DNA from: Opeltia flavorubescens
Taxonomy: Eukaryota > Ascomycota > Lecanoromycetes > Teloschistales > Teloschistaceae
NCBI GenBank assembly: GCA_000442125.1
Contig: KE546972.1
Span: 1,634,022-1,698,021, forward strand
Length of the DNA: 64,000 nt
Reading direction: 5' to 3'
Part shown: in pieces, positions 1,978 to 25,984 of the stretch
How positions within the stretch are numbered: the stretch's first letter is position 1
How the letters are laid out: each line of letters begins with the position of its first letter
Program-made: the position numbers and the translations under genes
Notes under the pieces: model-generated
Told to the model about the DNA's origin: nothing
The model's database searches: none
The model's input: only the letters and a program-made list of their open reading frames with translations

Positions 1978-1982
1978 CTGAG
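1978..1982. repeat. Left target-site duplication (CTGAG)
   Basis: CTGAG directly precedes the first base of the left terminal inverted repeat and occurs again at 25980-25984 directly after the right one. The pair marks the insertion site of the 24 kb element. Confidence 0.75.
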
Positions 1983-2146
1983 TATAGTCGCCCAGGTATA
2001 CTAGATTGCTATAACTATTTTCCTTTTTTATTTCGCTAAAATAAATTTTAAAAATTTAATTTTTATATACGCCCGACGCTTTATATCTATATTTTAATTC
2101 TATTCTATTATAATTTCGCTATAATTTTATTACGATTTTATAATAG
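1983..2146 (+). repeat. Left terminal inverted repeat
   Basis: This arm aligns with the reverse complement of 25828-25979 nearly throughout, with transitions at scattered positions and one short indel. Shared landmarks in order are GTCGCCCAGG, TTTCGCTAAAA, ACGCCCGA and TTTCGCTATAAT. The repeated TTTCGCT words inside each arm resemble subterminal transposase-binding repeats; that role is inference. Confidence 0.85.
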
Positions 2147-3046
2147 TTTTTATTATATTAAATCTATAAAACTTTTTTATAATTAAATATATCGCGATAT
2201 TCTTTTATATTTTAAAATTTTATTTATTTAATATTTATAAAATTCTAAAAACTATTTAATATAATATTTTTTAAATTCTATTATATTATATAAATATATA
2301 TTAATATTAATTTATAATTTTATTAATTTTTATTATAATCTATTTTTTATATCTATTTTTTAATTAAATTTATATCTATAAAATTTTATTTAAATTTTAT
2401 TTATAAATCTATTCTATATATATAAAAAAAACTCGATTAATAAAAAAATATTAAAAATAAACGGCTATAATTTAAAAAATTAAATTTAAAATTTATATCT
2501 TTAAACCGCGTAATTAAAGAAAATTTAAAATTTATTTTTATATTTATTTAATTTATTTATTAAAATAAATTAGTTAAATTTATATTAAATATAATATTTA
2601 TAAAATTATTATACTCTAGTTTAATTTTAATTAATATATATTAAATTATTTTTAAAAAATATTAACGCCCTAATTATATATAATAATACTCGCGTAAAAT
2701 TTATATATATTAATTAACGAATATTAAAAACCGAAACCGTTAATAATAAATATTCTAATATAAAAATTTTTATATTATATATACTATTAGATATAAAAGA
2801 TAATAAAGTTTCGAAAAAAAAAATAAAGTTTTTTATTTATTTAAATATATTTAATTTATTATTTAAACTATATTTATTATAATAATTAATAGTTTATAAA
2901 TTTAATTATTAAAATATATTAAATTAAATATATAAACTCGCGAAATATATATTTATAACTAGATATATATTAAAATTTTCTAGATAATTAAAACGATAAA
3001 TTTTTATATTATTATTTTTAATAAATTTATTAATATACTTTATATA

Positions 3047-3410
3047 ATTCGGAATAAATAATAAATTTATATATTATTATCGCCGGCGAGATAATCTAAA
3101 TAAAAAATAAAAGGTTAAAAGCGAAAAAAAATATAGATTTTTTATATTTTAAAAGGATTTATATTAAATAAAATATATAATATAAAAAATAATATTTATA
3201 AATAATATTAACGGAGTTATTATAAATATTCGAATATTCGAATTAAAATATTAAAACGAGTTTTTTCCTAATAAAGATTTTAAAAAAAATTAAAAATTTT
3301 TAAAATAATTTTAAATTTATAATAAATAATATATATATAAATATATATATAATTGAACCTCTATAATAGAATTAAAAAAATATAACGAATTTATAGCGAA
3401 AAAATAGTAA
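3047..3410 (+). repeat. Internal segment A, copy 1
   Basis: This stretch begins with ATTCGGAATAAATAATAAAT and continues through a AAAAGGTTAAAAGCGAAAAA-like word to a TATAGCGAAAA word. The same order and spacing recur at 13459-13805, with differences of the kind RIP makes. The two are diverged copies of one older sequence. What it encoded cannot be told. Confidence 0.5.
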
Positions 3411-3803
3411 AATAATATTATAATTATAAAAAATAGTTAAAATAAAATTTAAAAATTATATAATAGTTTATAATTATATTATTATATAATATTATTATTA
3501 TTAAAAATCTTTAATATATATATAAAAAAAATTACTATCGATTTAAAAACTTTTTATAATTATATTTTTTTTTTATATATAAAGCGCTTTATTTATACGC
3601 TTTATATTTTTAATAAATTTTAATTAAAATAGGTTAAATATTAATTTTTTACCGCCGGATATAAATTTTAAAATTTAAAATTATTATATTTTATAAAACT
3701 AATTAAACTATTATTATATTAATTAAAATTTTAAATATTATATTTAATTTATAAATTAATATTTATTAAAAGTTTTTAGTTTTTTACTAGTTTAATATTT
3801 GTA

Positions 3804-4310
3804 TTTATCGGAATAGATTGAATTGAACCGGATTTTAGCCTAATTAAATCTAATCTAAACCTAATTTATTATTAATAGATTAGATCGGGTTTTTTATAGA
3901 TTAGATTAGATTTTTTACGGGTTAACCTAAAAACCTACTACTAGTAAAAATAAGCTATAAATAGTAGTAAATTTTTTAAAAATAATTTTTAACTAATTTT
4001 AAAAAAGATTATTATAATTATTACTATAATTTTTTTTTCTAAAAAATATTTTTTAGCTAAAATTAATTTATTAAATAATACTAGAATTTATATTAAAATT
4101 AAAACTATTTAATACTAATTATTAATAGTTAATTTACTACTATTTTTAGTTTATTTTTACTAGTAATAGGTTTTTAAATTAAATTTAACCTAATCCGCGA
4201 AAAATCCAATCTATATAAGTTTTAAAAAATCGTTAAAAACCTAACCCAACCCGACCTATTCGCGGGTTAGGTCGGGTTAGATATAGATTTCCCCAATCTA
4301 TTCCGACGAG
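3804..4310 (+). mobile_element. MITE copy 1 (507 bp, TA target duplication)
   Basis: The ends are inverted repeats. The right end reads CTATTCCGACGAG, and the left end is the same sequence inverted but blurred by RIP. TA lies immediately outside both ends (3802-3803 and 4311-4312), as for Tc1/mariner-type MITEs. A second copy in the same orientation is at 22905-23410 and agrees along its length. The right part holds a subterminal hairpin, AACCCGACCTA at 4248-4258 against TAGGTCGGGTT at 4268-4278. It is non-coding and was presumably mobilised by a transposase encoded elsewhere. It inserted into the giant element. Confidence 0.8.
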
Positions 4311-7300
4311 TAAATACTCGCGGTAATAAAAAATAATAAAAGATTTAAAATAAATAGCGGATTTTAATTAATAATCGCAGCCGGAATTATTAATAAATAA
4401 TAGCTACTATTATATAGATTAGAAAAAGGGTTTTAAAAAAAATTTAAAAAAAAAAAAAGTTTTATAAAAAAAACCGGCTTTTAAAATATTTTATTAATAA
4501 ATTTAAATTAAAAATTTAACTTTTATTTTTTAAATAAAAAATAATAATTTAAATTTTAAAATTTAAAGAAAATATTAAAATATAAATATATATAAAAATA
4601 GATTATAAAAGAATTTAATAATAGCGGCGGACTTTTAATTATAAAACGAAATTATTTTTAAAATAATAATAATAGTATTAAAATAATATTAAAAGGTAAA
4701 TTATTATATATTAAATTTATTAGTTTAATCCGCGATTATATAATAAAATATTTCTATTTAAATTTAAATTTAATAAAACTTTCTAGATTAATAAACCTAC
4801 CGCGAGTATTTTATAAATATAACTTTTAGAAACCTTTAAAATCTATAGATTAAAAACAAAAATTTTCTAGTTCCGATTCTATAAAATATCTAGAATTTAT
4901 AAATAATTATATAACGTTTTATCTAATTTAAAGTATAATAATATCTATTTCCGATTACTTTTAAAAAAGAAAAAACCCGAACTCGTTTTATTAATTATTT
5001 AAAAAATATTAATAATATTTTAATTTATTTATACTAGCGGCTATTTTATATTAAAAATTACTAAAAAATAAATATAGGGGATTATATAAAAAAAAAAAAA
5101 AATAAATTATTCTATTAGTTATATAAAAGAATAAAAAAAAAATAATTAAATAATAAAATACTAGTAAATATTTATAATTAAATTCATTAAATAGTTTATA
5201 CTCTAGATTATTATATAGAAAAAAATCGCCGTATTTAGTTTTATTTAAGAAATTAAACCTTAAATTATTAATTTAACTAGAATAATAATAGCTTTTTATT
5301 TTTTTAATTTCTAAAACTTTTAAATATTTTTTTATTCTTAAAATTTTAGTAATATTATAGTTATTTCTATAATAAAAATCGATAATTTTTATAAAAAAAA
5401 TCTCGAAGTTACTAATATTATAGATAATACTAGCGATATAAATAGATAAAAAGTTTATTTTATATTTAATAGCTATATTAAAGTTAATTTTATTATTAAA
5501 AATTTATTTAGCCTAATTTAAAAACTAATAAAATTTAGGTTTATATTCGCGTAGAATTTTGATAGTTTTAATAATAAATAAATAAATATATAAAAGTCGG
5601 ATTATATATAAATAAACAGTTTTTTTTTCTTTTATTATATAATCTATAAAATTTATATTTACTAGATATTATAAATCGTTAATATTTAAACGCGGGAGTT
5701 ATATATTTATAATAATCCGATATAAAATTAAATAAATATTTAAAATAGTATAAATAAAGTAGCTTATTAACTATTATTTAGTTTAATACTAAAAAGTTTA
5801 ATTTAAAAATTAGTTAAAAAAAAAATATTAAAAAAAAATAATTATTTTTTATATTTAAAATTTATTAAAATTTAAATTTTTATTTTTTTATTATTAATAA
5901 TCCGATATTATTATATTTATTTATTCGCCGGATTTTTATAATATTAAATATATTTAAATAAATAATAACAATAATATTATAATAAAATACTATATTTTAT
6001 TATTAATAATATAAAGTTAAATTAAAAATAACGCTAATATTATAATAAAATACCGTTTTCTATTTTAAAATTTTTATAAAATCGCTAGATACTAGTTTTT
6101 TTATCGTTTAAATACTTTTAATAGGCTCGGTCGGGTTATAGAATATATTATAAATAATATAAATAAAACTAGTCTAGTTATTAATTATAAATTAAAAGTT
6201 TTACTTTAAAAAAAATAAAATATTTTTTAAATTTAATATAAATAAAAAATATTTTATTATATATAAAATTATATTATAATTAAAAAATTATAAAAATTTA
6301 AAAGCTATAATATTAATAAATAATAATATAAATATAAAATTTTTTTTTATAATTTAATAAATCTGTAATAAAAAATTAATAAAAAATTTTTTAAAAAATA
6401 ATTAGTTATATAATAAACGAGATTATTACTAAAAGTATAATTATTTAATAATTAGCTAAACTTTTATTTTTTTTTTTTTATACTTTTTATTTTTTTATTT
6501 CTATTTATTTATTCAACCTTTTTTTTTCTTTTATTATATTAACTATTATATTATTATTAGTTTATATTTTTATTTTATTATATTAAATAATTTTCTTACT
6601 ATAAATTAGAATATTATTATTAAAATTAAACTTTTAGAAATAATTATACGGTTAATAACGGTTTACTAGTATTATTAATATAAAATATAGAAAAAATAAA
6701 AAAAAAGCTTTTAAAAAAAGCTATTTAAAATTTAATATTAAAGAAAAATATTATATTAAAAAAAAAATAGTCCAGTTAAAAAAAAAAAAAAAAAAATAGT
6801 ATTAAAGTATTATATTAATAAAAAATCGAGTTTTTTAAATTTTATTAAAGCTTTTAATAATATTAATAAAATTTTTTAAAATAAAAGAATATAGCGAATT
6901 ATAGAATAATATAAAAAAAATTTAATATAAAAAAACTAATTAATATATTAATACCTATTTATTCGATTAATATAGGTTTTCCGATCTAATTATATTAATA
7001 ATAAGAATAGATATTTATTATTCTATAATATATATTAAAATCTAATTACTAGTTTAATAACCAGCTTAATAAAAATTTTAAATTATTTTTAATATATACA
7101 ATTTTCTTTAAATATATTAAATAATATTATATTAATATTAAAATAAAATATTATTTATTAAAATATTATAAAAAATATTATTAATAAAATAAAAAATATC
7201 GATAATAATACTATAATAAATAAAGAAAATTAATTATATATAATTTATATTTTTTAAATATAAAGAATAGCTAGCGGGAATTCGATATTATTATAAAATC

Positions 7301-8902
7301 GTTTAATTTAATAAATAACCTTTTTTTTAGTTTTATTAATATAATATTCTAGCTATTATAACTTTACCGCTTTTATAAATTAATTTAATCGAGGCAGGTA
7401 GCTATAAATACTATAAATAGTTATATATATAACGGGTTATTATAAACGGTCTATCCTACTATTAATAAAATAGATAGGAAACTCCGTAGAAATTTTTTAA
7501 ATAATAAAATACTAGTAAAATTACTTTAAAAACTAGTATATTAATAAAATTAATTTTAATAATAAAATATTTATAAAGTTTTTATATACTAGTTTATTTA
7601 TAAATATACTTTTAAATTTTATAATTTATAAAATTTTAAATAATTATATATATTAAATATATTATATTTATCTAATATATAAATATATATTATATCCTAT
7701 AATAAAAATAATATAAAATATTTTTATTTTAACCGCGTTTTAACTATATTTTCGATTTAATTCCGCTAATATTCTTTAGATTTTTCTAGAATAACTAGAA
7801 AATTTAAAATCTATATACGAGCCTAATATATATAAAGTTTAATTTATAGAGATAAATTTTTTTTTTTAAGTATAGTATTTAATTAAACGGTTGAATTATT
7901 AATTATATTATTTATTTATAGCGGTTTTAAATCTTTAAATTAAATTATACTATTTTTCTTTTATTTTTATTTATTTTATACTCTATAGTCTATTATTTTA
8001 TTTTAGGATTCCGTATTATTATCTATTTTCGCGCTTTTATACCGTATATTATTACCTTTTAATAAATAAAGTTATTTTTTAAAAAAATTTTTACTTAAAA
8101 ATCTTTATTTATTTTTATTTCGATATATTTTTTTATTAAAAACTTATAAATATTTATAATTAAACTAGATTTCTAATATTTTTTTAAAGGCTGCTTTATA
8201 TATTTAAATATAACTTTAATTTTAATATTTATTAATATAGTTATAATTATTTTTAAATTTTTCCGGTTTATTTTTTTCTTTAATTCGTTTTTTTTAATCC
8301 CTTTTAGAACTAGAATAATCGTATTAAAAATCGTTTAAAAATCTATAATTCTACTATTAATAAAAAAAATAAAAATAGTAGATAGTTTAACCTATAGTAT
8401 AGTAGTTAGTTAAAGGATTCCGGTTTTATAATTTTATAAATTAAGTCGAATATAATCGCTTTTTTTAAATCGACCTCTATTTTATTTTATTAAATACTAT
8501 ATTAGATAATCCTTTTATTAATTTTAATAATAGAATAAATTTTTTATATTCTTTAATAAAAAAATTTATTTTTAAAAAAAATTTTAATTTAAAAATTTTT
8601 ACCGATCTTTGTTTTATTATATTAGTAAACTTTTTATATTAAATATAATTTAAAAAATTAGTAATCGAATAATTAGATTTGATAAAAATTAGTAATTATT
8701 TTTTAATTAATATTTAATAGAGTACTAAAATTTTTTTATATTATACCTATCCGTATTTTCGATTAGATTTTTTTTTTAGTTATAAACTAAAGGTTTTTAT
8801 ATTAAAAATTATTTAAAAAACCTAAACTATATAGTTTCTAAATAGAAAATTCTATCCGTATTTTTATTATTACCTACTTATCTAAATAATAATAAAAATA
8901 TC

Positions 8903-9061
8903 GAATTTATAGAAAATAATTTATTTTTATTAAATCTATTAAAAGTAAATATAAACTTAATTAAAAAAAGATTAGAATTTATAAAAAATAGTTTATTTTT
9001 ATTAGATTTATTAAAAGTAGGTATAGACTCGATTAAAAAAAAATTAGAATTTATAATTAAA
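8903..9061 (+). repeat. Tandem repeat, 72-bp period, about 2.2 copies
   Basis: Units begin with GAATTTATA at 8903, 8975 and 9047, and their interiors match apart from RIP-type differences. The period is a multiple of three, so it could descend from a repeated 24-residue protein motif, but no frame is open. It lies within the fossil element. Confidence 0.65.
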
Positions 9062-9611
9062 AAATTTAATTGTATTAATAAATATTTTAATAAATATAAA
9101 AACGAATTTATATCGTATTTTTATAGTCTAGTAGTAAAATTTTTATATATAAACCCGGAATACCCGGGTTTAAACTCTAATAGAAATATTTATACTAAAT
9201 ATTATTTAAAAAAACTTAAATAATATTTAAATTAATATAAATATCTTTTTTTTTATTTAAAATTCTATTATTATTATTATTATTAATAAAGCTACCGTTT
9301 TCTATATAAATAAATATCGAGTAGTAAAAAATAAATATCGTATATAGCTCGAGAATAATAAGCTTGCTTAGATTTATAACTATTACTAGAATAATTATAT
9401 AAAAATAGGTAAATTAATAAAAAAAATTAAATTATTAATAGATATTTAAACGTTTAATTTATTTCGATATACGCGATAAATTTATCGATTTTATCTATTT
9501 TAATTATACTAGCTATATTAATTTTAATATACTTTTATTTATAATAATTTCGTTATTATACTTTTTATAGCGTATAATTACTATATAACCGTATATATAT
9601 ATTATATCGAA

Positions 9612-10275
9612 ATTAATTAGTATAGTTTTTTTTAATTTTTAATATATACTCTAACTATTTATTTTTTTAAATCTATTACTCTATTAATTTATATTATAAT
9701 TTAATATTTATTTATATTTTTTAACCCGGTTTAAAATTATTAAATTAGTTTTATTAATATATTTAAATATTTTTTAATTTTAGTATCTCCAGCGGTTTAA
9801 ACCTCTATTTATCTATTAAAAAATTCTTTCCGTTAGTTTCGTTTAGATTATTAAAGAATATAAAGATTTTATTTTTTTGCTAAAAGAAAAAACGATTATT
9901 ATCGAATATAATAAAAAATAATTATTTAAAGAAAAATATACTAATTATATAGCTAAAACTTTAATAATCGATAATTATAATAATAAAAAAACGAAAATTT
10001 TAAAAACTATAAAGTTTTAGTTTAAAGTAAAAGATTAATATAAATATTTTATTAACGATTTTATTTATAATAGTATAATAATAAAAAATAATATTATATT
10101 TATATTTTATAATTTTATTTTTTTAAAATATTACTACTTTATATTAATAAACTTCTAGCTAGTTTTTTTAATAATAGTTCAGATATAACTATATAATAAA
10201 TAAACTTTAAATAAATCTTTTATTTTATATTAAAAAAACAGTTTTTGTATTAAATACTATTTAAGAAACTGGTAA
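9612..10275 (+). repeat. Internal segment B, copy 1
   Basis: A run of shared words in the same order links this stretch to 14420-15190. These include TTAATTTATATTATAATTTA, a GGTTTAAA word followed by a TTATTTATTTAT-like stretch, and a final TTAAATACTATTTAAGAAAC-like word. The copies have diverged by RIP-type changes and indels. The ancestral content is unknown. Confidence 0.5.
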
Positions 10276-12936
10276 TTAAAAAACCGGGCTTTATTAATAC
10301 AATAATAGCGTATATAATAATTAATTTAATAATAAATAATAGCTTTTTTTTATTTTATATTCCGCTAAAAAAAATTTAAATACTTTTATTATAATTTAAA
10401 TATAGGCTTCTTTAAATAATATTTAATTCTAGTTTATTATATATATTTATAATTAAAAAAAAATAATATAGAAATAAATTAAAATAAAATTATATTAAAA
10501 TATTATAACTACTAGATTATAGAAAATAATTAATAATAAATCGATAATATAATTATATATTACTCTAATCTAATAAATATTAAATTTTCGATCGAAATAA
10601 AATCTATAATCGCTAATATTTTACTATATATTAGATAAATTTTCGATATAATTTCGAATACTATTTATAATTTATTTAGTCTAATCGACTATTTAAAATT
10701 TTTATAAATTTAAAATTTTTAAAATAAATTTATAGCTAGTTAATAAGAATTAATTAATAAAAAAAAACTATTTTAAATATTCTATTATTTTACCTAACTT
10801 TATTAATATTTTAAAATCTAAAAGAATTTTATTAATCCCCTAGATCCCTATTTATTAAATAGTATCTATTTTATTTACCCGCTATTAATCCCGCTATTAA
10901 TCCGTTTCGGGTTTTTATAATAAAAAAAAAAGTTATAATTAAATATATATAAAATATAAAATTATAGAATCTAATATTAATTAATTATTTTATAATATTA
11001 GTTTTAATTATAAAATATAAAATTATATTAAATCCTATAACTATTAATTTTAAACGCCTTCTAATTTATTTAAAAATTTAAATAAAAATAAACGGCCGTT
11101 ATATATATACTCGTAGATAATATTTTAAAAGCCGAGATAATATTATTTATAAAATTTTATATATTCTAATTTTAAAATCAACGGTAAATATATAAAATTA
11201 AAATCTAGTATTATAAGCTAGTTAATATACTAATCTAATATTAACTAAAAAAAATAATTATTTAAATTTGAATAATATATTTAAATAATTTTTTTATATT
11301 TTAATAAAATAAATTTACTAAACTTTTATATATTTTATTATAATTTTTCGAATTTATTATTAGAAAATAAATAAATTTAATTTTTAATAAATTTTAAAAA
11401 ATAATAATATAATTTCTATAAATATTTAAATACTATATTTAAACGATACTTTTATATTTTTATTCGATATATATTCTATAATTTCCGAAATTTTTTAATC
11501 TTGGAGTAAATAATAATTAAATAAATAGTTAAAAAAATAATTTAATCTTTTAAATAGTTATTATTAAAAAAACCTTTTTTTTAAAAAAATCGGAAATAAA
11601 TCTATATAATATAAATATTATATAATAACTAGGTATTTCGAAAATATTATATCTATTAGTAGAATTTATAGATATCTATAAATTTATTCTATTATTTTTC
11701 TACTTTTATATTTATAATACTAGAACCGTATTTATAATAATCTAGAAATTATATACTAGAATCTATTAATTAGCGTAGTTAATAATATATTTATACTATT
11801 AATCTAATTTTACTTCCGCGGTCTATCCGAATTATATAAAAAATAAATTCTAAAAATTAAATATAATTAAAGTACTATTAAAGAATACTAATTTAAATAT
11901 AAACCGTATATTTAATATAAATCTATAATAAATAACGGAAATATTTATTAACGATAGTATAAATCTCGATTCTATAATTTTTAAACTTATTATATCTATT
12001 AAAAGATTATATAATATTAAACCTAGATAAAACGAATTTTTTTTCTTTTATTAAACTTTTTTATTATATTATTCTATATATTCCGGTATAAAAAGCCGAT
12101 ACTATTAATAAAGCCTATTTTTATAATAGATTAGCGGTAAAAATAAAATACCTATTATTAAAAAACTATATTTATATATTTAATAATTTATTATATAAAA
12201 GTAATCGAATAATTTATTTCTTTTATAACTTTATATAATATTTTTTTTAAATTTTTTTTATAGTAACTCGGATATTTGTAAGTCTATTATATTTTATTTT
12301 TTTATCGAAATCGTTTTTTAAAATAAACCTAAATTTAGATAATACTATATAAAAATTTTATAGGATATTAGCTAGCTTTCTTTATTTAGAATATAAAATA
12401 TTATTTTATTATTAAAATAAATATAAAAGTAGAAAAATATTATATATTATACTAGATCGTCCGAATTTTTAATTTTTAAAAGTTTATATATATTTTATTA
12501 CTTTAAACGCTAGCTAAAAATATATTTAAAAATATAAATAAAAAATCGATTATTAAAAAACTATTAAATATTATTTATTTTTATACTATCCCGGATATAA
12601 TCGATAATATATTTTCGATATTTATTAAAATCTAATATTAAACGCGGTATAATAAAAAAAATATCGGTAATATTAAATTAAATAAATATAAAAAAAAATT
12701 AAATAAAAGAAATTATAAAAATATAATAAAAAACTCTTTTTAAATTTTTTTAGAATATATTATAATTATTATATTAGGACTAGTAATCGGACTAGTTTTT
12801 TATTTTAAAAATTCGAATTTATTTATACAATAGTCCTAATTAATATAAAATAGTAATATAGTAAAATAAAATCGCTTATTTAAATCTTTTAATAATAGTT
12901 AAAACTAAAGTTAAAACTATAAAATAATTTTAAAAA

Positions 12937-13250
12937 GCTACTACTAGCTTTAAAAATAATTAAAAATATAGATAAAAACCGAGTAAATATTAACGGGGGA
13001 GTATTATTTAAAAAAAAGAAATTATAGATATATAAAAAAAACTACTACTAGTTTTAAAGATAAATAAAAACGTAAATAAAAATTAAGTAAATATTAATAG
13101 GGAAGTATTATTTAAAAAAAAGAAATTATAGATAATTAAAAAAAGCTATTACTAATTTTAAAAATAAATAAAAATATAGATAAAAGCCGAGTAAATATTA
13201 ATAAAAGAATATAATTTAAAAAAAAAAAATTATAATTATTTAAAAAAAAT
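12937..13250 (+). repeat. Tandem repeat, 104-bp period, three copies
   Basis: Units start with GCTACTACTAG-like words at 12937, 13041 and 13145. Each holds the same sequence of words (GAGTAAATATTAA, then AGTATTATTTAAAAAAAAGA). The period is not a multiple of three. It is a minisatellite-like array inside the fossil element. Confidence 0.7.
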
Positions 13251-13458
13251 TAGAGAAAATATTATACTAATAAAAATCGGAACTAGTTAAAAAACTAGAT
13301 ATTTATAAATATTATAAAATATTTTTAACGTTATATTATTAATAATTAGAAAAAATTTTAACTAGCGAATTCCTTTTATATATTAAGGACTTTAGAGTAA
13401 TAAAAATAGGAATTTATATTTTATCGAATTTTAAAGTTTAATATTAGTATTATATTAA

Positions 13459-13805
13459 ATTCGGAATAAATAATAAATATATAAACTATTATTAATTACT
13501 AGACCTTAAGTATTAAAAATAAAAAAGGTTGAAAGTAAAAAAAAATATTAGTATCGCGCGAGATAAATAATAATAAAGGCGATATTTATATAAAATTAAT
13601 ATAGTTAATAATAAATTTAAAAAAATATTAATTAAATATTTTAAATTTAATTTATTAATATACGCGTTTTATTAAAACTAGTTTTAAAAGTTTTTATATC
13701 TTTTCTAATTAAATAAATAAATTATATAATTAATATATTTAATATAGATATATATATAATTAAACTTTTATAAAAAATTAATAAATCTATAGCGAAAATA
13801 TACCG
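13459..13805 (+). repeat. Internal segment A, copy 2
   Basis: This is the counterpart of 3047-3410. It starts with ATTCGGAATAAATAATAAAT and ends near ATAGCGAAAATA. In this copy segment B follows within about 0.6 kb, whereas in the first copy A and B are about 6 kb apart, so something may have inserted between them. Confidence 0.5.
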
Positions 13806-14419
13806 AAAATTTAACGAAATTTCGTTATAAATATAAAGGGACTACTAGTTATTATAAATTTAAAAATTTTTATAAAATTTTTTTTTTTATATATTATTAT
13901 CTTTATTAAAAATAAATTAAAATTAATATTCGAATTCTATAATTATTTTAAAATATTATAAAGGAGAATAATTTAAATATTATACTATATATATATACTA
14001 AACAGCGAATTAACTAAATATTTAACTTAAATTTAATATTTAATTTAATATAGTATAACTTTTTTTAAATTTTAAAAAAAATATAAAATATATATTAAAC
14101 CTATATCGAATAAAATTACTATATTAATATAATAATTATACCTTTTAGCGTTTTAATAAATATATATTTATTTAATAAATCTATAATAATATTTTATAAT
14201 ATATTCCCTTCTAGTATTTCTATTATATACTATTTAAATATTTTTTTTTATTTTTTTATAATAAATAGAATTAGAATAAAAATATATTTCTCCGCGGTTT
14301 TAAAAACTATTATAATTTATAAGCACGGCGTTATATATATAACCGGCCTGAGAATAATAAAACTAGTAAACTTTTTAATAATAAAAATAAAAGTAGTATA
14401 AATAATATATTTATACTTT

Positions 14420-15190
14420 TTAATATAGCTTTTTTTAGTTTTTAATAAATACTTTAATTATTAATTTTTATAGATTTATTATACTATTAATTTATATTAT
14501 AATTTATTTTCTACTCGCGTTTTTTATTTAAGTCTATATTTATTAAAGCGGTTTCGAATATATATAAAAAAATCTAGTAGTTTAAAAGTATTTAATAGGT
14601 TTAAATTCTTATTTATTTATTAATAAATAGTTTTTATTTATATAATTTAGATTGGTTTAATAATTAAATAATATATAAATATTCTAGCTTCGTTAAAAAA
14701 ACGAGTAACTATTATTAATAGTAAAAAAGACGAATTATTTAAAAAAGAGCGTATTAGCGGTAAAGCTAATACTATTTATAATATTAATAAAAAAAAAGTA
14801 GAAACTTTAAATATTTTAATTTAACTAAAATAATCGGTAATAATATTTTATTAGTAGCGGTATAATAATAAAAAATAATATTATTTTTAAAATTAATAGC
14901 TTTATTATTTTTATATATTTTAAGCGCCTTTATAGATTTTAGAAAAAAAATAGTATTTTTATTTATTTTTTCTTATTATTTTCTATAAATATCGTTTCGA
15001 AATTTTCCGCGCTTTTTTATATTAATAAATTTCTAGTTAACTATATAAACGGTAATAAAATAAATTAGTAATAATATTTTATCGACTATTTTTTTTATAC
15101 CGGTATAATAATAGGTTTTAAACTAATTTTTTATTTTTTATTAAATTAAAAGGAAGATCTTTATATTAAATATTATTTAAAAAACTAGCG
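14420..15190 (+). repeat. Internal segment B, copy 2
   Basis: This is the diverged counterpart of 9612-10275 with the same order of shared words. Its right end runs into the foldback duplication at 15096-15319. Confidence 0.5.
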
Positions 15191-15319
15191 TTTATAAAAA
15201 ATTAGTTTAAAACCTATTATTATACCGGTATAATAATAGGTTTTAAACTAATTTTTTATTTTTTATTAAATTAAAAGGAAGATCTTTATATTAAATATTA
15301 TTTAAAAAACTAGCGTTTA
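15096..15319 (+). repeat. Identical 125-bp-offset duplication joined by a perfect palindrome
   Basis: The sequence from 15096 to about 15194 is repeated without any difference 125 bases further on. At the junction a perfect 62-bp palindrome is centred on CCGG (arms 15196-15226 and 15227-15257), because the first 31 bases of the unit also appear inverted just before the second copy. Identity of the copies inside RIP-saturated DNA means the duplication happened after RIP, by a replication template switch, or is an assembly or read artefact. Confidence 0.85.
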
Positions 15320-18300
15320 AATAATCGAATATTATAATTATAATAATAATATAAAAACTAGATTATAATATTAATTTATATTAAAGGATTATTATTAGTT
15401 TAAACTATAAAAATATATTAATAAAAATAGGATTAAGATATATTTTAAATATAGTTCGATATTTTACTAGAATATAAATTAGGTTTAATACTAAATAAAA
15501 ATAAAATTTTACTGATTTTAATAGTAATAATATTTAAATAAACGTATAAATTTTATTTAAAATCGAAATTTTATATTTTAATATAATTTTATAATTAAAA
15601 TAATTATATTTTAAAAAATAAATTTTATTTTACTATTATACTAGATCGAATTTCTATTTATTAAATTATTATAATATTTCGAAAACTATTTAAATTATTT
15701 ATTAAAATTCCGTTATAATATTAAATACCGTTTATATTATATACTAAACTTTGGTTATATTATTAAAAATACTAGTTAATTAAATATTAAAACGCCGAAT
15801 TAAAACTTTTATTTTATCGAAAATATTTTTATTTATATTATTAGTACGGCGTATTTTATCTAGAATTCGGCGGATATTAATATAAACTTTTAAAGGAATC
15901 TTTAAAACTCGATTAATTAATAGAAATAAATTATAAATAAAAAAATATATAGCTCGATATTATTTCGTATTATAATACCGCCTAATATATTATATATATA
16001 TTTCTAATATCGCGGTTTTCTAATAATAAATAATATTATTAAAACAATTATAATAGCTTTATTTATTTATAAAATTAAAATTTTTTTAAAAATATTAATT
16101 ATAATAAATATAGGAGTTTATTATAATAATAAAATAAAATTAGAAAAGATTAAAAAGATATTAAAATAGAATTATAAAAATCGAATATTTTTATAATATT
16201 AATATTAAAGATTAATCTTTTCTATTATTTATTTTAATAGGATATATTATAATTTAACNGCGTTTTTACTTTAATTTTTCTATATAATTATATAATTTAT
16301 AGGTTTATCCGGAAATTTTAATCTAATATTAAATATAAACTATTATATTTTTTTAAAAACGAATAATTATAATATTATAAAAATTACTTAAATTAAAAAT
16401 TTTATATTAATATATAAACTAGAAATTTATTAATTATCCTTTTAAATTTTTAATATATATTTTTTATTTTTTAATCTATTTTATATTCCGATTTTAAATA
16501 TTAATACTTTTTTTAAAATAGCGAATAATATTTTTAAAGAAGTAGAAACCTTTAATATTTTTTTTTTTAATATTTTATCTAGGATAAAATCTTATTTATA
16601 GGCGTTAAAAAATTTAGAAAAAATTATAATAATAAATTTTAAAAGATAAAATAATAAATTAACGCCTTTAAATTTATTTTATAAAAAATTCTATTATTTA
16701 AAAATTATCGAGGTTATAAATTTTATATTAAAATAAAAAATTAATTAAAAATTATTAATAGAAATATTAAAAGAATTTAATATTAAAAAAAAAAAAATTA
16801 ATATTTTTTATTATTTAAACTTCTTATAAAATTTATAAAAAGATAAAATAAATATAATTAGAATATTTATTAATATTAAATATAATTTTTTATTATAAAT
16901 TAAATATATTATTATTTTTATTTCTATATTTAATATTTATTATATATTACTACTTTTTAATATATTTATTTTATATTTTTATATATACTTTTAAACGAAT
17001 ACGGAAAAATTTAATATAAAATACTAAATAATATTAAATTAAAAAAAATTAATCTTTTAAAAATAAAATTAAAAGTAAAAAAATATATATATTATATCGG
17101 CTTAATTAAATAAACTATAGTTATAGTTATAATAAAAGATAAAAATTTCTTTTTATTAGCTATATTTAATCTAATATCTTTTATTTAAATAAATAAATTC
17201 CAAACGTTTATCTAAATAATTAAACGATTCTAATATATTTTTTTATTTAAAATAGCCTTATATTTATTTATTATACTTTAACCCGTTTTTTTAAATAAGT
17301 TATTATATTTAATATTACCGGTTTAAATAGATTTAAAAAACTAAAATTTTTAATAATAATTATTATAAAAATAAAAACGGTATAATAAATTTTATAAACT
17401 TTTATAACTATTTAAATCGGCCGAAAAAAAATTATATATAGTAAAACGTACTACTATTATTTTTTTTACTTATTATATTAACTATAATCGATTATATTCT
17501 ATTTTTATTTATAAATTCCTTTTTCGATATTTATTTATTTATAGAATATTTTAAATTTTTTTTTTATTAATAATTCCTTTTAATATTAAATATTAATTTA
17601 TTTTATTTATTTTTTCTTTTATTTAAATATTTATACGAACTTTTTCGCTTTAATTATATCTATAAAAAATTAAATAATATTTATATTTATTAAAGATTTT
17701 ATAATATTATAGAAATCTAAAATATAGAATAATATTTTAAAATTTTAATAATAATAGCTTTAGAACGGCCTATAAAATTTATTAATAGAATTTATAAATA
17801 TAAAAGGATATAAAATCCGAATCTTTAAAAATTATAAAAAAATTTAATTACCTATTAAAATTATAATTCGAAAAATATTAATATTATAATCTTTAAATAA
17901 ATAATTAGATATTTATTTAAATAGCGTTTTATTATTTCTAATAAAGATTTATACTAACTTTATATAGATTTCTCGAAAGTATTTTTATTAATTTTTATAA
18001 ATTTCTATTTTTTTTTCTATTATTACTATATTTTTTAATTAATTATCGCTTTAATAATAAAGCTTTTTATTTATTTTTAACTTTTATTAAAAATTTTTAT
18101 CAATTTTTAATTAATTTTAAATTATTTTTTTAATAATTTATTATATTTTTTTATTTATTTCCTTTTAAATTATATATTATTCGATAACTAGTAAATAATA
18201 TAAAAATTATATAGATTATAATTATTACCCGGGATATAATATATATAATCCTACTTTTAATTCTTTTTTTAATTTTTAATAAAAAATTATCTATTTTAAT

Positions 18301-21300
18301 ATATTTCTCTATTCCGGTTTTTTTTATTTCAATTCTTTTTATTTTTAAATTATTTTTATATTAATCCTTTTTTAATTTTTTTAAACGAATTTTTATTAAA
18401 ATTAACCTTTTTTGCCGCGTTTTAAACCGCGTTTTAATATATATAGCTCGAACGCGAAAATTTATTAAAAGACGTTTATAGTAAAAAACCTAGCTTTTTT
18501 TAAAAATTTAAAAATAATACTATCTATTTTTACTATTAATTAGAATAATAATCTTTTATTTAAACCTATTAAAATAAAAAATACTAAAATAATAGTTAAA
18601 GATAAATATAATTTAAATATATATTTTATAATCGTTTAATACTATTATAATAACTAAAATATTTCTATTATCGATTATTATAAACTTAAAATTAACTATA
18701 TAACTTTTATTTTTATTTTTTATTTTATTTTTTCCTTTAATTTTACCTATCTAGTATTAATAGCTATTAGAACTATTTTTTCTAAAATTTTAAAAATATA
18801 CTATTACGAATATCGAAGTTTTTATTATTAATATAATTATCGACCGATATAAATATATAAAAGCCTTTTTTAAAAAATTAGAAAATATAAAATAGAATCG
18901 CTAATTTATTACTAGAGCCTTTAATATTAAAATAAAAATATAAAAATTAGAAATAATAATAAATTTAATAATATATAAAATTATATAATTAAATCGTTTA
19001 TTATTATATTTTAGGAATATTAAAAGCTAGTTAAAGAAAAAAAAAAAATATATACTTATTATATAGTATAATATTTATCTAGAAAAAATAAAATCGAGAG
19101 ATTTTAATTTAAATAATAAAATTAAAATTAAATTAAAAAAAAAATAATAATTAAATAAAAGTTTAAAATAGAATTTAAATCTATTAAAAAGGAATTTATA
19201 ATAGAATTTAAATATAGATCCGGCGCTAGAATTAAGCGTATACTAAAAAAAAAAATTAAGATAAAACCTAAAATTAAAAGGGATTTAATAAAGAAAACAA
19301 CCTTCGATATTATAAAAAATTAGGGTAAGAAAAAGGTATTATAGCCTAGTATAAAATAAGAAAAGTATATAATAAGCGAACTAAACCCGATTAAAGCCGA
19401 GAAACGATAATAATCGATATTATCGCGTAAAAGTACTATAAGTCTCCTTTTTTTTAATAAAATTTTATTATTTTATTAAAAAATATTACTATTTTTTTAA
19501 TATATTAAAAATATTTTTAATTATAACCCGTCCATATTTTTATTTACGGATCTAATTATTATATAATAGGATTTATTTTAACTCGACGAAATTAAAGATT
19601 AATATTTTCTTTAAAAATAACTAGAGCTAGTTTCTAATATATATAAAAAATAAACCTTTTTTTAATAATATATAAAATAATATACTAATTAAAAAATTTT
19701 TTTTTTCTAGTTTTTATATAGTCGATAATATCTAATTAAAATTCTAAAAAAATAAAATTACTATATTTAATTAATCGACTGGTTAATTAAATAATAATTT
19801 AAATAACCGTTTAATTAATTATTTAACCTATTAATAGACTAGTTTAAAAAAATCTTTATACTAAAAAATAAATATAAAAGGTTTTAAATAAAATAATTAT
19901 AGTTTTTAATATAATTAGTAATAACTTTAATAGAAAAAATTAAAGGAAAAAATTTATATAAAAATTCTATTTATTTATTCTATTTAATAGATATAATTAA
20001 TTAAATTTATTTTGTTAATAAAATCTATAATTCGACAAAGTTTATTTTAAAAAAATAATAAAATCTTTTAATATAAAGTAATAAAAAAATAGTAATCTAT
20101 AATCGGAGTAATATTATAGTAAAAATATAGCGAAAATATAATAAAAACTCGGTTAAATAATATAATAGATTTTTAGATATAATTTTATCTAGATTTTTAA
20201 AATAGATTTTTTAATACTAATTATTTTAATTAAGTATAAAGTTAAAATTAATATATTAATATATAAATCTAAAATATTATAATTTAATTTAAATTATAAA
20301 ATTATAATTATTATTAAATCTTTAATTTTTTAATATTTTAATAAATTTTTTTTTTAATATCGAATAAATAAAATCCGTTTTATTATTAATATAATATTTT
20401 ATTTTTATAATTTTTAACTTCGACTATTAATTTATAATTAGCTAGAATTTTACTTTTATTTAAAGTATTACTTTTATTTAAAATAGATTAATTAATAGAA
20501 AAAAGTTTTATTTTAATATTTTTATATATAAACTAGCGGATTTCTATATAATATTCTTTTTCTATTTTTAAAGTTTTTTTTTTATCTTCCTCTACTATTA
20601 TATAAGCTTTTTCTTTTTTTTCGCGATAGCGGCGTTTTTTTTCCTCCCTTTTATAATAAATAGTAATCTCGTTATTTTAAAAAATAATAAGCTTTATATT
20701 CCGCTCCGCGGTAATTAAAACCTTTTCTACCGTTTTATTCGCTATTATTTATCTATTATTTTTTATAATAATAGTTTATTATTTATTTTTTATTTTTATT
20801 TATATATTTTATTTAATCCTTTATTATTTCTTTATTTATATTTATATAATATATAATATTTATATTTTTAATTAATAATTAGCTTTCTTTTTATAAGTTT
20901 AAATTTTAGTTTTAATAATACAAAATATTATATAATTAAACCTTTATTACTATTTAATCGAAATAGAAAAGATTAAATAATATATATTTTTAGGACTTTT
21001 TTTCTTTATTATTTTTCCTTTTTACTTTAGTATTAATATTAGTACTACTAGTTTTAATAATTGTATTATTAAATTTACTAATCGATTTTAGAAATCGAGT
21101 TCTTTTAATAAATATTTATAAACGAGTACTTTTAATAAATAAACTAGAAATAGTATTAAAAATCGTAAAAATAAAATTTATAGTATTTATAAAGTTTTAA
21201 ATTTAATAAATTATATTAAAAAAAATTAAATAATTTTATAATTAAATAAAAAAACGGTTTAAAACTAGCTTAAAAATAGTTTATAAATAATTTTAAATAT

Positions 21301-22904
21301 AAAAAAAAAAGAATTAAAAAAAAAAAAAAATATAATAAAAAAAAAATATTATTAAAAACTACTAAATTCTATAATTATATTTTTAAATTTTCGTTTTTAA
21401 AACTATTTATATATTAATATCGAGTAAAATTAAATAATTTTTAATTTATTCTAGAGTATATAATTAGCTATATAATTTTATTAAATTATAGATTAATATT
21501 ATTTATATTTAATATAGAATTCTATTATAAAATCGCGTTTTAAATTAATATATATAAAATTTTATAAAAATACCCGCGTTAAATAAATTATAAAAATTTT
21601 AAATTTTTTTTAAAATTTTATAATATACGGCTATTTTATTTTATAAATTATATTTTAAACAAATAATATTATTTATAAACTTTATAGTATTAAATTTAAA
21701 TATTCGAATATATATTAAATTATATATTTTAGTTAAATATTAATTAAGCTATAATCTATATAAAAGCGGATAAATATTTTAATATTATTTAATAATAAAT
21801 TTTTTTTTTAATACTTTTTTTTATTATTATACTTTTTTTTATTTAAATATAAATAGAAAATTTTTAAAACTAGTAATTAAAATAAAATTTAAATTAATCG
21901 AATTATTTATAAAAAATAGATTTTTTTTTATTTAAATCTAGTATTCGGAATTTTTTTATTTTTTTATAAAGCTTTTAGATTTTATTTAATAATTTACCTA
22001 CTACTATTTATTATTCCACTTCCTATTATTTATTATTAATTTTTAGCTTTATAATATAAAGTTCTATAATATTTTAATATATTTTTTTTATTTATTCCGT
22101 TTTATATTATATTTTATATAATAATATTTAAACCTTTTATTTATATATTAATCAAGTATATTAAATATTTTATAGAAATATTACTATTATTTAATATTTA
22201 TATCTATAAATATACTAATTTTAAATTATTATTTTTTAAATTATTATAATCGCGTATACTAATTTTAATTTATTATTTTTTAAACTTTTATAATCGTTTT
22301 CTACTATAATATTTTAAAGGAAAAAACGGAGTAAAAAAAGAATAATATTACTATCGCTAGTATTAAATATACTCGAATTACTTTAAATAATATTTAATAT
22401 AATAATATTTATTAAAAATCGAACTCGGGCTTTATATATTAATATATATATATTTTACTATTCGATTATAGGGGCTATTATACTATTTTAACTATTATTA
22501 TTATATATTAATTACTCGAACTAGAATTATATATTTAATAATATAATTATTATAAAAAATATAATTTAGTTTAAAACTATTATAAAATATAATCGATAAT
22601 AATAATATAAATAAAAATAATAGATATAACGCGGATCTATATCTATATATTATATTCTAGCTAATATTATTTTATTAATATAGCTATATAATTTAATAAT
22701 TTAATTTTTTAAATAACTTTTAATATAAAAGCGAATATTTTTTATTTAACGCGCCTAATTTCTATTTTTATTATCTATTATTTATAATAAACCTATTTCT
22801 ATAAAATAAAAATTAAATATATTATAATATATATAAATAGGAAATTCGAGCTTTTTAAATATTTTTTTTTAACCGATCGAATTTTTTTTATATATATAAA
22901 ACTA

Positions 22905-23410
22905 CTCGTCGGAATAGATTGGGTTAGATCGGGTTTTAACCTAGTTGAATTTAATTTAAACCTAACCTATTATTAACGGGTTAAATTAGATTTTTTATAG
23001 GTTAAATTAAATTTTTTACGGATTAATTTAAAAACCTACTATTAATAAAAATAAGCTATAAATAATAGTAAATTTTTTAAAAATAATTTTTAATTAATTT
23101 TAAAAAAAATTATTATAATTATTACTATAATTTTTTTTTTAAAAAATATTTTTTAACTAAAATTAATCTATTAAATAATACTAGAATTTATATTAGAATT
23201 AAAACTATTTAATATTAATTATTAATAATTAATTTACTATTATTTTTAACTTATTTTTACTAGTAGTAGGTTTTTAGATTAAATTTAATCTAACCCGCTA
23301 AAAATTTAATCTATATAAATTTTAAAAAATCGTTAAAAACTTAACCCAACCCGATTTATTCGCGGGTTAGGTCGGATTGAGTATAGGTTTTCCTAACCTA
23401 TTCCGACGAG
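22905..23410 (+). mobile_element. MITE copy 2 (506 bp, TA target duplication)
   Basis: The left end CTCGTCGGAATAG is inverted exactly at the right end (CTATTCCGACGAG, ending at 23410), and TA flanks both ends. Internal sequence matches the copy at 3804-4310 in the same orientation. This copy keeps its left terminal repeat better, so it defines the family ends. Confidence 0.85.
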
Positions 23411-25827
23411 TATATAAAACAGCGGCTTTAAATATTATAATTTAATTTAAAGCTATAATAGAATATTAATAATAATATTATTATAATTTTATTTAAATCT
23501 AGCGCGGTATAAATTAAAATTATTTTTATATATTTTATTATAGCTAATATATTTTTATTAATAACCGCGTGGTTTAATTTTTTAAATATTATTTAATATA
23601 TAAAATTTTCCTTTTTTCTTTAAAAGAAAAATAGAATATTATTATTAAAAAATAGATAAATAATTATTCTATCTATATTTTTATCTTTTTTTAATCAGCG
23701 ATCCGGTTAAAGAAAAAATATATAAATCGAAATTCGACTCTTTTACTAAAGAATTTACTATATATAATTTATTTTTATAAATATTTTAAATTCTATACCC
23801 GTTTCTAATTTTTAATTCTAAAATTTCAAATTCGTATTATTTAACTAAAATCGAGTAAAATTATAGTAGCTAATAAAAAAAATTAAAATATATATTCTTT
23901 TTTAATATTATATCTTTTTACGGTTTAAATTAATAAATAAATAAATATAATAAATATATTAATTTTAAAGCGAAGAATATATAATAAAAAAAAAATTTTA
24001 TTAAAATTATAGAAATATTTAAAATCGAACTTTTTTTTTAAAATTTTTTTTAATACCTAGTTTTAACTATATTTAAAGTATAACTCGCCTTTTACTAGAT
24101 CCGCGTAGCTATTATTAATTTTTAATATATCGATATTCGTTATAATAAAAATAACTCGTTTTTTTAAATAATTATTATTATTATTAAAATTAGCGAAATT
24201 TAAATAAATAGCTTTAATTAAACTATTTAAAGTATTTTTTAAAATTAATCTATATTTTTATAACGCCTTTTTAATATTAGATTTATTTATAATAAAAGTA
24301 CTAGTATAATCTATTTTTAATATCTTTTAAATAAATTCCTTTATTTTAAAACGGTCCTATATATTCGATAAAAAATTACAAAACTATATATCGATTATTA
24401 ACTATAAAATATAAATATTTTTTTAAAAAGGAAAATTTTATAAATATATTTATATTACTAAATTCGAGCCTATATTAAATTATATAGGTAAATATTAACG
24501 GAAATTATTATAAAATAAGTTATTTATTCTATAAATAGAATATTAAATTTAATTTCTATTAAATTATAAAAAATTTAGCTAATAATTATAAAATTATTTT
24601 TCCGCTATATTATCGATTTATTTTAAAAAATTAAATCGACTTTATAAAAGAATTCCGTTTTTATTATATTTTTTTTAACTTTATAAATATTATTAAATAT
24701 TAAATTTAATAAAATTTAAAATATATTATAAACGGTTTAATCGTTATTAAATAAAATCGATATAATATTAAAAAAAATAATAGTAAAAATAATTTTATTA
24801 CTTTTTATAAATAAACGGAGCTTAATTATAATAATATATTATATAAAAATTTTACTAGTATTATTATAATAATTTAAAAAAAAAAGATTAGAATTTATAT
24901 CTATATTATAAAAATACTTATTAAAAAATTCGTTAATAACCGTTTCTATAATAATTTTAATAGTAGCTCGTTAATTATAATTAAATTTAATTTATTTTAA
25001 TTCTATTATATTTAATACTACTATTAATTATTTTAAAAATAATTTATTATTTTTTTTATATAAGACGCTTTTTATTAAAAGCTAGTAATAATTTTATAAA
25101 TTTTACTAATATTAGCTTTATATTAATAATTTCGAAAAAATATAAATAGACTATACGGTTTAAAAAAGTAATATAACTAGCTATTTCTAAAACTATTATA
25201 GAAAAAAAATATTTTAATTTTAAAAAAAAAGAATTTAGAATTTATTTAAATATTTAATTAGTTTATTATTATATAATATAACACGTATTATAATATATAG
25301 TAATATTTTATAAAAATTAGATTATATTATATTTTTTATTTTTTATAATATAAATATACTCGGTTACTTTTAAAAAATTATCCTTTTATATAGAATATAA
25401 AAAAGTATATAAAGGGAATTAAATTTATTACTTTAAAAATTCTAATTTAATAATCTAATATTCGAATAATTAGACTAGAAATTTTTTATTATATAATTTT
25501 ATTATTAGTTAATATTAACTAGATTTATAAATAAATATAATATATATAATAAATATAGTATATAATAAATAAAAAATAAGTATAGTATATAATAGCTATC
25601 TACTATATAATAGAATAGAATTAAAATTTTATTATTAATAACTTTAAATAAATTTATTATTTTAGTTTAAAATTTATTATATATTATTATTTTTAATATA
25701 TTATAAAAATATAATTAAAATAAACTCTAAATTAATAATAGTAGATTTTATTATATAATTAAAAGTAAAAATAGCTTTAATATAATTTTAAAGATACCGA
25801 ATAATATTTAAATAATAATTATTATTT

Positions 25828-25979
25828 TATTATAAAATTATAATGAAATTATAGCGAAATAAAAATAAAATATAGGTATAAAATATCGGGCGTATATAGA
25901 AGTTAAATTTTTAAAATTTGTTTTAGCGAAATAAAAAAGGGAAATAGTTATAGTAATCTAGCACACCTGGGCGACCATA
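25828..25979 (-). repeat. Right terminal inverted repeat
   Basis: The reverse complement matches 1983-2146. The outermost part keeps its GC-rich core (GTCGCCCAGG), and composition returns to normal immediately outside it. Confidence 0.85.
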
Positions 25980-25984
25980 CTGAG
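25980..25984. repeat. Right target-site duplication (CTGAG)
   Basis: This is the direct copy of 1978-1982, adjoining the last base of the right inverted repeat. Confidence 0.75.

What the first reader, a model, noticed from the sequence alone, without database searches (positions are those of the whole stretch)
1978..25984. A single 24 kb transposon-like unit defined by terminal inverted repeats and a 5-bp target duplication
The AT-rich block is usually dismissed as generic silenced DNA, yet its two borders are inverted copies of each other for about 150-165 bp. They begin TATRGTCGCCCAGG, and CTGAG flanks both ends, so the whole block entered as one element. Size, long TIRs and a 5-bp duplication do not match common fungal families such as Tc1/mariner, hAT or MULE. 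They are closer to a Maverick/Polinton-like or otherwise unclassified giant DNA transposon. It is a broken fossil, so family assignment rests on its ends.
Basis: partly seen in the sequence, partly recalled or inferred. Interest (0 to 1): 0.88.

Follow-up and report, generated by a model that had tools for sequence, protein, structure and literature searches.

The report
Giant fungal IS3EU transposon, RIP-killed
The AT-rich 24 kb block is one very large cut-and-paste transposon, one of six full-length copies in this fungal genome, and although mutation has wrecked it almost completely, its transposase gene can still be recognised and shows which family it belongs to.

Summary
Window 1983-25979 is one transposon: 166-bp terminal inverted repeats (TIRs), TATRGTCGCC..., and a CTGAG target-site duplication (TSD). 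The genome holds six such elements, colinear over a 22.6-kb core; five are longer and carry insertions. The same ends bound 12 MITEs of 639-680 bp. TSDs are 5-7 bp, exact in 16 of 19 elements against 0 of 342 mismatched flank pairs.

All six are saturated with RIP (GC 12-15%). RIP-aware scoring finds remains of an rva_4 (PF24764) DDE transposase in 6 of 6, 174-254 bits against noise up to 39. Plain translated search puts the gene at window 11449-12021. Reference proteins of that family weakly match bacterial IS3/IS481 transposase models, and the termini fit IS3EU. It is therefore most likely a giant IS3EU element, not a Maverick/Polinton.

It also carries a broken Helitron helicase gene, split to opposite ends by an inversion older than the amplification. 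About 19 kb of payload remains unread.

The parts
1978..1982 (.). left copy of 5-bp target-site duplication CTGAG
25980..25984 (.). right copy of target-site duplication CTGAG
1983..2148 (+). left terminal inverted repeat, 166 bp, starts TATAGTCGCCCAGG
25814..25979 (-). right terminal inverted repeat, 166 bp, starts (reading inward) TATGGTCGCCCAGG
11314..12650 (-). RIP-destroyed IS3EU-type (PF24764 rva_4) DDE transposase gene; aligned blocks 12183-12650, 11622-12122, 11314-11601; a short intron near 11600 is inferred
   Evidence: standard translated search hits 11449-12021 (C8:1645470-1646042, E 9e-9)
23943..25034 (-). PIF1 part of a Helitron RepHel gene, cut off at both sides, no Rep signal
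   Evidence: Pfam PF05970 in copies E2, E3, E6 and E5, not in the two frames of this copy tried; this copy 47 bits against 25-26; joint score 101 bits; homology with the RepHel loci
2820..3025 (+). C-terminal piece of the same Helitron helicase gene, displaced to the left end by an inversion (breakpoints near 2606 and 23943)
3808..4313 (.). insertion of ~0.5 kb, absent at this place from E2-E5 (E6 lacks the region), repeated at 22901-23411 (96% in R/Y code), with internal inverted repeats
22901..23411 (.). second copy of the ~0.5 kb insertion
12932..13249 (.). 104-bp tandem array, 3.1 copies, just upstream of the transposase gene
   Evidence: repeats at the corresponding place in E2, E3, E4, E5

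Best explanation
A giant (22.6-kb core) cut-and-paste DNA transposon of the IS3EU superfamily. SHOWN: long TIRs, TSDs of 5-7 bp, six full-length copies, remains of a DDE transposase gene of the IS3-like rva_4 family inside all six (E6 lacks its last part), 12 MITEs with the same ends, saturation by C-to-T type mutation, later nested retrotransposons, and a Helitron helicase gene whose two parts lie at opposite ends in all six. INFERRED: the transposase bound the conserved end (TATGGTCGCCCAGGTGTGCCAGATTGCCATAACT), excised the element and joined it to staggered target cuts about 6 bp apart (5-7), giving the variable TSD. It moved the MITEs in trans. An ancestor that already carried inverted Helitron DNA spread as near-identical copies; the host's repeat-induced point mutation then killed them all.
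For: Six convergent TIR pairs and colinear copies differing almost only by transitions: 11.3-13.2% transitions against 0.45-0.67% transversions for E2, E4, E5 versus E3. TSD statistics. Fungal-type rva_4 profile on six copies jointly: 193 + 122 + 75 bits in colinear blocks against 20-28 for 12 permuted and 1 reversed profiles. Each copy alone 174-254 bits in 6 of 6; permuted up to 30; two nested retrotransposon stretches 22; other fetched loci up to 39. Columns taken as catalytic: first D reads AAT in 6 of 6 (compatible with D under RIP), second D still GAT/GAC in 5 of 6, E still GAA in 5 of 6, spacing D-58-D-40-E (that these are the catalytic residues is inferred from the motif). Plain translated search of the 34.4-Mb genome: P0143 gives one hit, inside this window's element; P0176 gives two significant hits, inside E2 and E5, and one at E 0.7 elsewhere. 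NCBIfam: IS3-family model matches 9 of 10 rva_4 proteins and IS481 6 of 10, all below the curated cut-offs. Termini TATGG..CCATA agree with IS3EU 'TAYGG..CCRTA' and 'TA..TA' (PMC12730594, PMC10045372, passages read).
Against: TSD length varies 5-7, while IS3EU is described as usually 6. That PF24764 is the IS3EU family is inferred from its weak IS3/IS481 similarity, not from a named IS3EU reference protein, which I did not have; for the 3 proteins of the animal-type list IS481 scores better than IS3. The animal-type rva_4 profile gave only 33.5 bits, near its controls. Codon-usage scoring picks the transposase frame as best in only 1 of its 3 blocks. No transposase tree was made. No empty site and no relative in another fungus could be examined. 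One of 12 MITEs (L042) has no TSD. That the transposase belongs to a nested element is not fully excluded.
Confidence: 0.9

Rival explanations
1. Maverick/Polinton-like element: protein-primed PolB, retroviral-type integrase, capsid genes.
For: Size 22.6-36 kb, long TIRs, TSDs near 6 bp.
Against: The integrase present is the IS3-like rva_4 type. PF03175 gives no match in the elements, though that test is weak on RIPped DNA. Start TATGG rather than the Polinton start (recalled).
Confidence: 0.03
2. The TIR element is non-autonomous: the transposase belongs to a smaller IS3EU element nested in its ancestor, and another source moved the ends.
For: The transposase lies in the middle, far from both ends; the interior shows other composite events (Helitron pieces, inversion).
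Against: All six copies hold the gene; the outer ends themselves have IS3EU-type termini; two rva_4 proteins searched against the genome find significant matches only inside giant copies.
Confidence: 0.07
3. A giant Helitron or Helitron-mobilised block.
For: Helitron-type PIF1 in the copies; two other loci have PIF1 in a longer RepHel gene followed by interior DNA shared with the giant.
Against: Helitrons have no TIRs and make no TSDs (recalled); in the giant the helicase is cut in two and no Rep is seen.
Confidence: 0.02
4. Coincidental AT-rich repeat borders of a RIPped region.
For: AT-rich RIPped DNA gives many weak inverted repeats (927 pairs).
Against: Six pairs with TSDs, 22.6-kb colinear core, 0 of 342 control TSDs.
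Confidence: 0.001

Closest known systems
IS3EU superfamily (with GingerRoot), including fungal TET+ IS3EU families (PMC12730594, PMC10045372: passages read)
   Same: TA..TA termini (TAYGG..CCRTA in the Pucciniales families described), long TIR, TSD around 6 bp, IS3-like DDE transposase
   Different: 22.6-kb core; TSD 5-7 bp in one family; no alpha-kinase motif found (a single typed motif, weak test); TET/JBP not tested; carries inverted Helitron DNA
Styx of Zymoseptoria (PMC10853768: passages read)
   Same: IS3EU-type DDE transposon in an ascomycete, RIP-affected, 6-bp TSD, solo ends
   Different: Styx is about 7.9 kb with 36-bp TIRs; this is about three times larger with 166-bp TIRs and MITEs
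Maverick/Polinton
   Same: size, long TIRs, TSD near 6 bp
   Different: IS3-like rva_4 integrase; no sign of PolB by a weak test
Helitron (RepHel)
   Same: fragments of the PIF1 helicase gene
   Different: no Rep signal, gene split, element has TIRs and TSDs

Membership tests
IS3EU | IS3-like DDD/E transposase | tested here: met
   the step from PF24764 to IS3 is a weak model match
IS3EU | TA..TA termini; TAYGG..CCRTA in described fungal families | tested here: met
   MITE ends TATGG..CCATA; definition from PMC12730594 and PMC10045372 passages
IS3EU | TIRs longer than 30 bp | tested here: met
   166 bp
IS3EU | TSD usually 6 bp | tested here: inconclusive
   of 19: 6 bp in 8 (two with one mismatch), 5 bp in 6, 7 bp in 4, none in 1
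IS3EU | transposase groups with IS3EU in a tree | not tested
   no named IS3EU proteins at hand; the RIPped gene was not mended
Maverick/Polinton | protein-primed family B DNA polymerase | tested here: inconclusive
   no match inside the elements, low power on RIPped DNA
Maverick/Polinton | Polinton-type integrase | not tested
   no Polinton integrase reference used; the rva_4 match makes it unlikely
Helitron | contiguous Rep-helicase protein | tested here: not met
   no Rep signal in the giants; helicase split
Helitron | no TIRs, no TSD | tested here: not met
   TIRs and TSDs present; the criterion is recalled
Starship | DUF3435 tyrosine recombinase at one end | tested here: inconclusive
   no match in the genome, but no control genome rang
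KDZ (Kyakuja-Dileera-Zisupton) | KDZ transposase | tested here: inconclusive
   no match, no control rang
KDZ (Kyakuja-Dileera-Zisupton) | Kyakuja: 7-bp TSD, CA..TG ends, no TIRs; Zisupton: 8-bp TSD | tested here: not met
   TATGG ends with TIRs, TSD 5-7 bp, 7 bp in 4 of 19; features from PMC12730594 passages

The most novel reading that the evidence does not exclude
IS3EU transposons in ascomycetes can grow into giant cargo carriers: this lineage took up about 20 kb including part of a Helitron, inverted it inside its own ends, and still spread to at least six sites, so IS3EU would be a further class of giant fungal mobile element besides Starships, with payload genes hidden by RIP.
Probability: 0.35. 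Interest if true: 0.65.

Novelty: new variant of a known kind. Interest (0 to 1): 0.55.

Why it matters
Very AT-rich blocks in fungal genomes are usually written off as unreadable. Here one proves to be a defined giant transposon whose superfamily can be told from its transposase, because RIP keeps purine/pyrimidine identity and leaves enough codon information for likelihood scoring against known proteins. The same approach should work on other RIP-dead elements. It suggests that IS3EU elements can approach the size of small Starships (their size range is recalled), and it supplies a MITE family with the same ends.

Tried and rejected
Pfam scan of three RIPped frames with X at stops: nothing. 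Reading stops as Q/W, six frames of whole E2 gave PIF1 and two hits far below cut-off, UBA_NBR1_C and KORA, taken as chance; one 3.8-kb E5 piece gave nothing; the transposase was missed by that route. I first took PIF1 for the element's own helicase; searches show it is a broken Helitron gene, so that reading was dropped. A single RIPped helicase query found one protein, a plant RepHel. An animal-type rva_4 profile gave only 33.5 bits, near its controls of 22-29, and nothing on single copies; the fungal-type profile settled it. Ab initio gene finding: R/Y dicodons gave the lead to PIF1 but host codon usage picked the right frame in only 2 of 4 known blocks. PF24764 searched as a family in the genome gave nothing. 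Alpha-kinase, carried by fungal TET+ IS3EU elements, was not seen with one motif (16 bits against 16-22) and PF02816 gave nothing with no control ringing. TIR 29-mer in viral and prokaryotic contigs: none. rva_4 alignment in viral contigs: none confirmed. In the C16 locus 2 of 4 further sampled stretches match the giant (core 5.1-5.5 and 7.3-7.7 kb), one matches a nested-retrotransposon sequence, and the one at the expected transposase place matches nothing; in C8 retrotransposon sequence lies at that place. Left unresolved.
Full report
WHAT WAS CLAIMED AND WHAT IS THERE. The inverted borders are real: 166-bp TIRs at 1983-2148 and 25814-25979, flanked by CTGAG on both sides. The window is C8:1634022-1698021 of a 34.4-Mb genome in 23 contigs. 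From ORF lists alone no gene is obviously interrupted at the site.

SIX COPIES. Searching the genome with the left TIR gives 14 hits: 12 form six convergent pairs, 2 are partial. Bounds: E1 (window, 23,997 bp), E2 C6:257577-281608, E3 C14:690983-713618 (22,636 bp, without large insertion), E4 C2:838553-870353, E5 C10:191479-227044, E6 C8:407026-431609. Differences from E3 are mostly transitions (11.2-13.2% across the five), with transversions 0.45-0.67% for E2, E4, E5, 1.1% for E6 and 3.6% for E1. RIP indices are extreme: TpA/ApT 1.16-1.20, (CpA+TpG)/(ApC+GpT) 0.06-0.11. In purine/pyrimidine code, which RIP does not change, E2-E5 are 98.1-99.7% identical over their shared core blocks outside the nested insertions, except one 4.6-kb block at 96.5-97.0% in E5. 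Size differences come largely from nested insertions: a 9.2-kb element with 301-bp direct terminal repeats in E4 and a relative of it in E6, which scans as a retrotransposon (two RNase H matches above cut-off, one Tf2-type match below it; E6 also lacks core 1616-8909), two 6.4-kb repeats in E5, two ~0.5-kb repeats in E1, small ones in E2.

SMALL RELATIVES AND TSDs. A 24-base pattern of the end with up to 3 mismatches has 42 matches against 1 for the pattern read backwards: 12 giant ends, 24 ends of 12 elements of 639-680 bp (GC 39-44%), 2 of one 3.5-kb element, 4 single ends. TSDs (19 elements with two ends): exact in 16 (5 bp in 6, 6 bp in 6, 7 bp in 4), two giants 6 bp with one C/T difference, one MITE none; 0 of 342 mismatched flank pairs match over 5 bp or more. 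The variable length is unusual: the passages I read give usually 6 bp for IS3EU.

TRANSPOSASE. Ordinary domain scans fail on DNA of 12-15% GC: X at stops found nothing in three frames, stops read as Q/W found only a PIF1 helicase above cut-off. I therefore scored profiles by the probability of the observed bases given an original codon under C>T and G>A mutation, on single copies and on six copies jointly. Singly, 6 of 6 copies score 174-254 bits in the main block (permuted maximum 30.3; two nested retrotransposon stretches 22; 24 kb of host flank 31; six other fetched loci up to 39). Of conserved columns (at least 85% one residue), 9 of 9, 46-50 of 52-54 and 12 of 13 are compatible in the three blocks (E6 lacks the third). 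The D, D, E columns taken as catalytic read AAT in 6 of 6, GAT/GAC in 5 of 6 and GAA in 5 of 6. A plain translated search with single proteins agrees: P0143 has one match in the whole genome, C8:1645470-1646042 = window 11449-12021, E 9e-9; P0176 has two significant matches, in E2 and E5, and one at E 0.7 elsewhere. Of 10 rva_4 proteins (7 of the fungal-type list, 3 of the animal-type list) NCBIfam's IS3 model matches 9 and IS481 6, all below the curated cut-offs; IS481 is the better one for the 3 animal-type proteins and for P0198; one protein also touches IS21 and ISNCY. Pfam gives rva_4 in 10 of 10 scanned (5 of them the same as) and an N-terminal Clr5 domain in 6 of 10.

HELITRON PIECES. 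About 1 kb inside the right TIR lies PIF1 of Helitron type (PF05970 in 3 of 7 frames tried, E2, E3, E6, best E 7e-16; in E5 by plain family search; 101 bits jointly, controls 24-28). On single copies the own-genome Helitron PIF1 stands above its three shuffles in E1, E2, E3, E6, only slightly in E4 (39 against up to 35), and not in E5. No Rep signal. Two other loci, C8:1162201-1166500 and C16:860801-865100, carry PIF1 with upstream RepHel sequence: Rep-only scans give 26-41 bits, above three permutations in 3 of 4 cases, the C8 scan with the own Helitron not; the Rep nuclease domain itself lies outside what was read. There the helicase continues without break into its C-terminal part (53-55 bits against 14-22). 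Six of six giants match these loci in two separate blocks: the PIF1 part near the right end on the minus strand, stopping at E3 21694, and sequence from core position 624 near the left end on the plus strand; in 1 of 12 comparisons (C16 with E1) the alignment runs 500 bp past that stop at background-like identity. The C-terminal helicase piece is found at the left end (25.4 bits against 12-17 for 12 permutations) and not at the right (13 bits). An inversion of about 20 kb of the interior before amplification explains this; the gene was thus broken before RIP. In C16 the shared interior continues to at least core 7692.

MECHANISM. Shown: ends, TSDs, transposase remains, copies, MITEs, RIP, nested inserts. 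Inferred: cut-and-paste by the IS3EU transposase with a 5-7 bp stagger, trans-mobilisation of MITEs, rapid spread followed by RIP. The MITEs are unRIPped, perhaps because they are short and diverged (inference).

COMPARISON. Kojima 2025 (PMC12730594; abstract, outline and passages) gives Pucciniales TET+ IS3EU families 6-bp TSDs and TAYGG..CCRTA ends, and places TET/JBP between transposase and alpha-kinase genes. Kojima 2023 (PMC10045372; passages) gives TA..TA and usually 6 bp. Styx (PMC10853768; passages) is 7.9 kb. The giant-transposon review (PMC6431247; passages) has no occurrence of a word starting IS3. In the searches run (capped listings with starts of abstracts) I saw no IS3EU of this size, but Repbase was not searched, so novelty of size is not proven.

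LIMITS. Host species, empty site, other fungi and about 19 kb of the core are not examined. That PF24764 equals IS3EU is inferred.

Noticed in passing
L027, L028, L031, L032, L034, L037-L043: Twelve 639-680 bp MITEs with internal inverted repeats, GC 39-44%, not RIPped, sharing the giant's terminal ~34 bp.
   Followed up: yes
L029:4736: Single end followed within about 60 bp by its own inverted copy: a tiny foldback.
   Followed up: no
L030:2138-5659: 3.5-kb element with the same ends and TSD TTCGG, GC 20%; one end is MITE-like (about 87% in R/Y code), the rest unidentified.
   Followed up: partly
L046/L051 (C8:1040401-1045200): Helitron RepHel gene in an open frame (1669 aa; the part fetched holds a run of N) in a genome with many RIPped PIF1 copies.
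   Followed up: partly
C8:1162201-1166500, C16:860801-865100: RIPped RepHel loci joined to DNA shared with the giant's left interior; their full extent and ends are unknown.
   Followed up: partly
window 12932-13249: 104-bp tandem array just upstream of the dead transposase gene, with repeats at the corresponding place in E2-E5; possibly regulatory.
   Followed up: no
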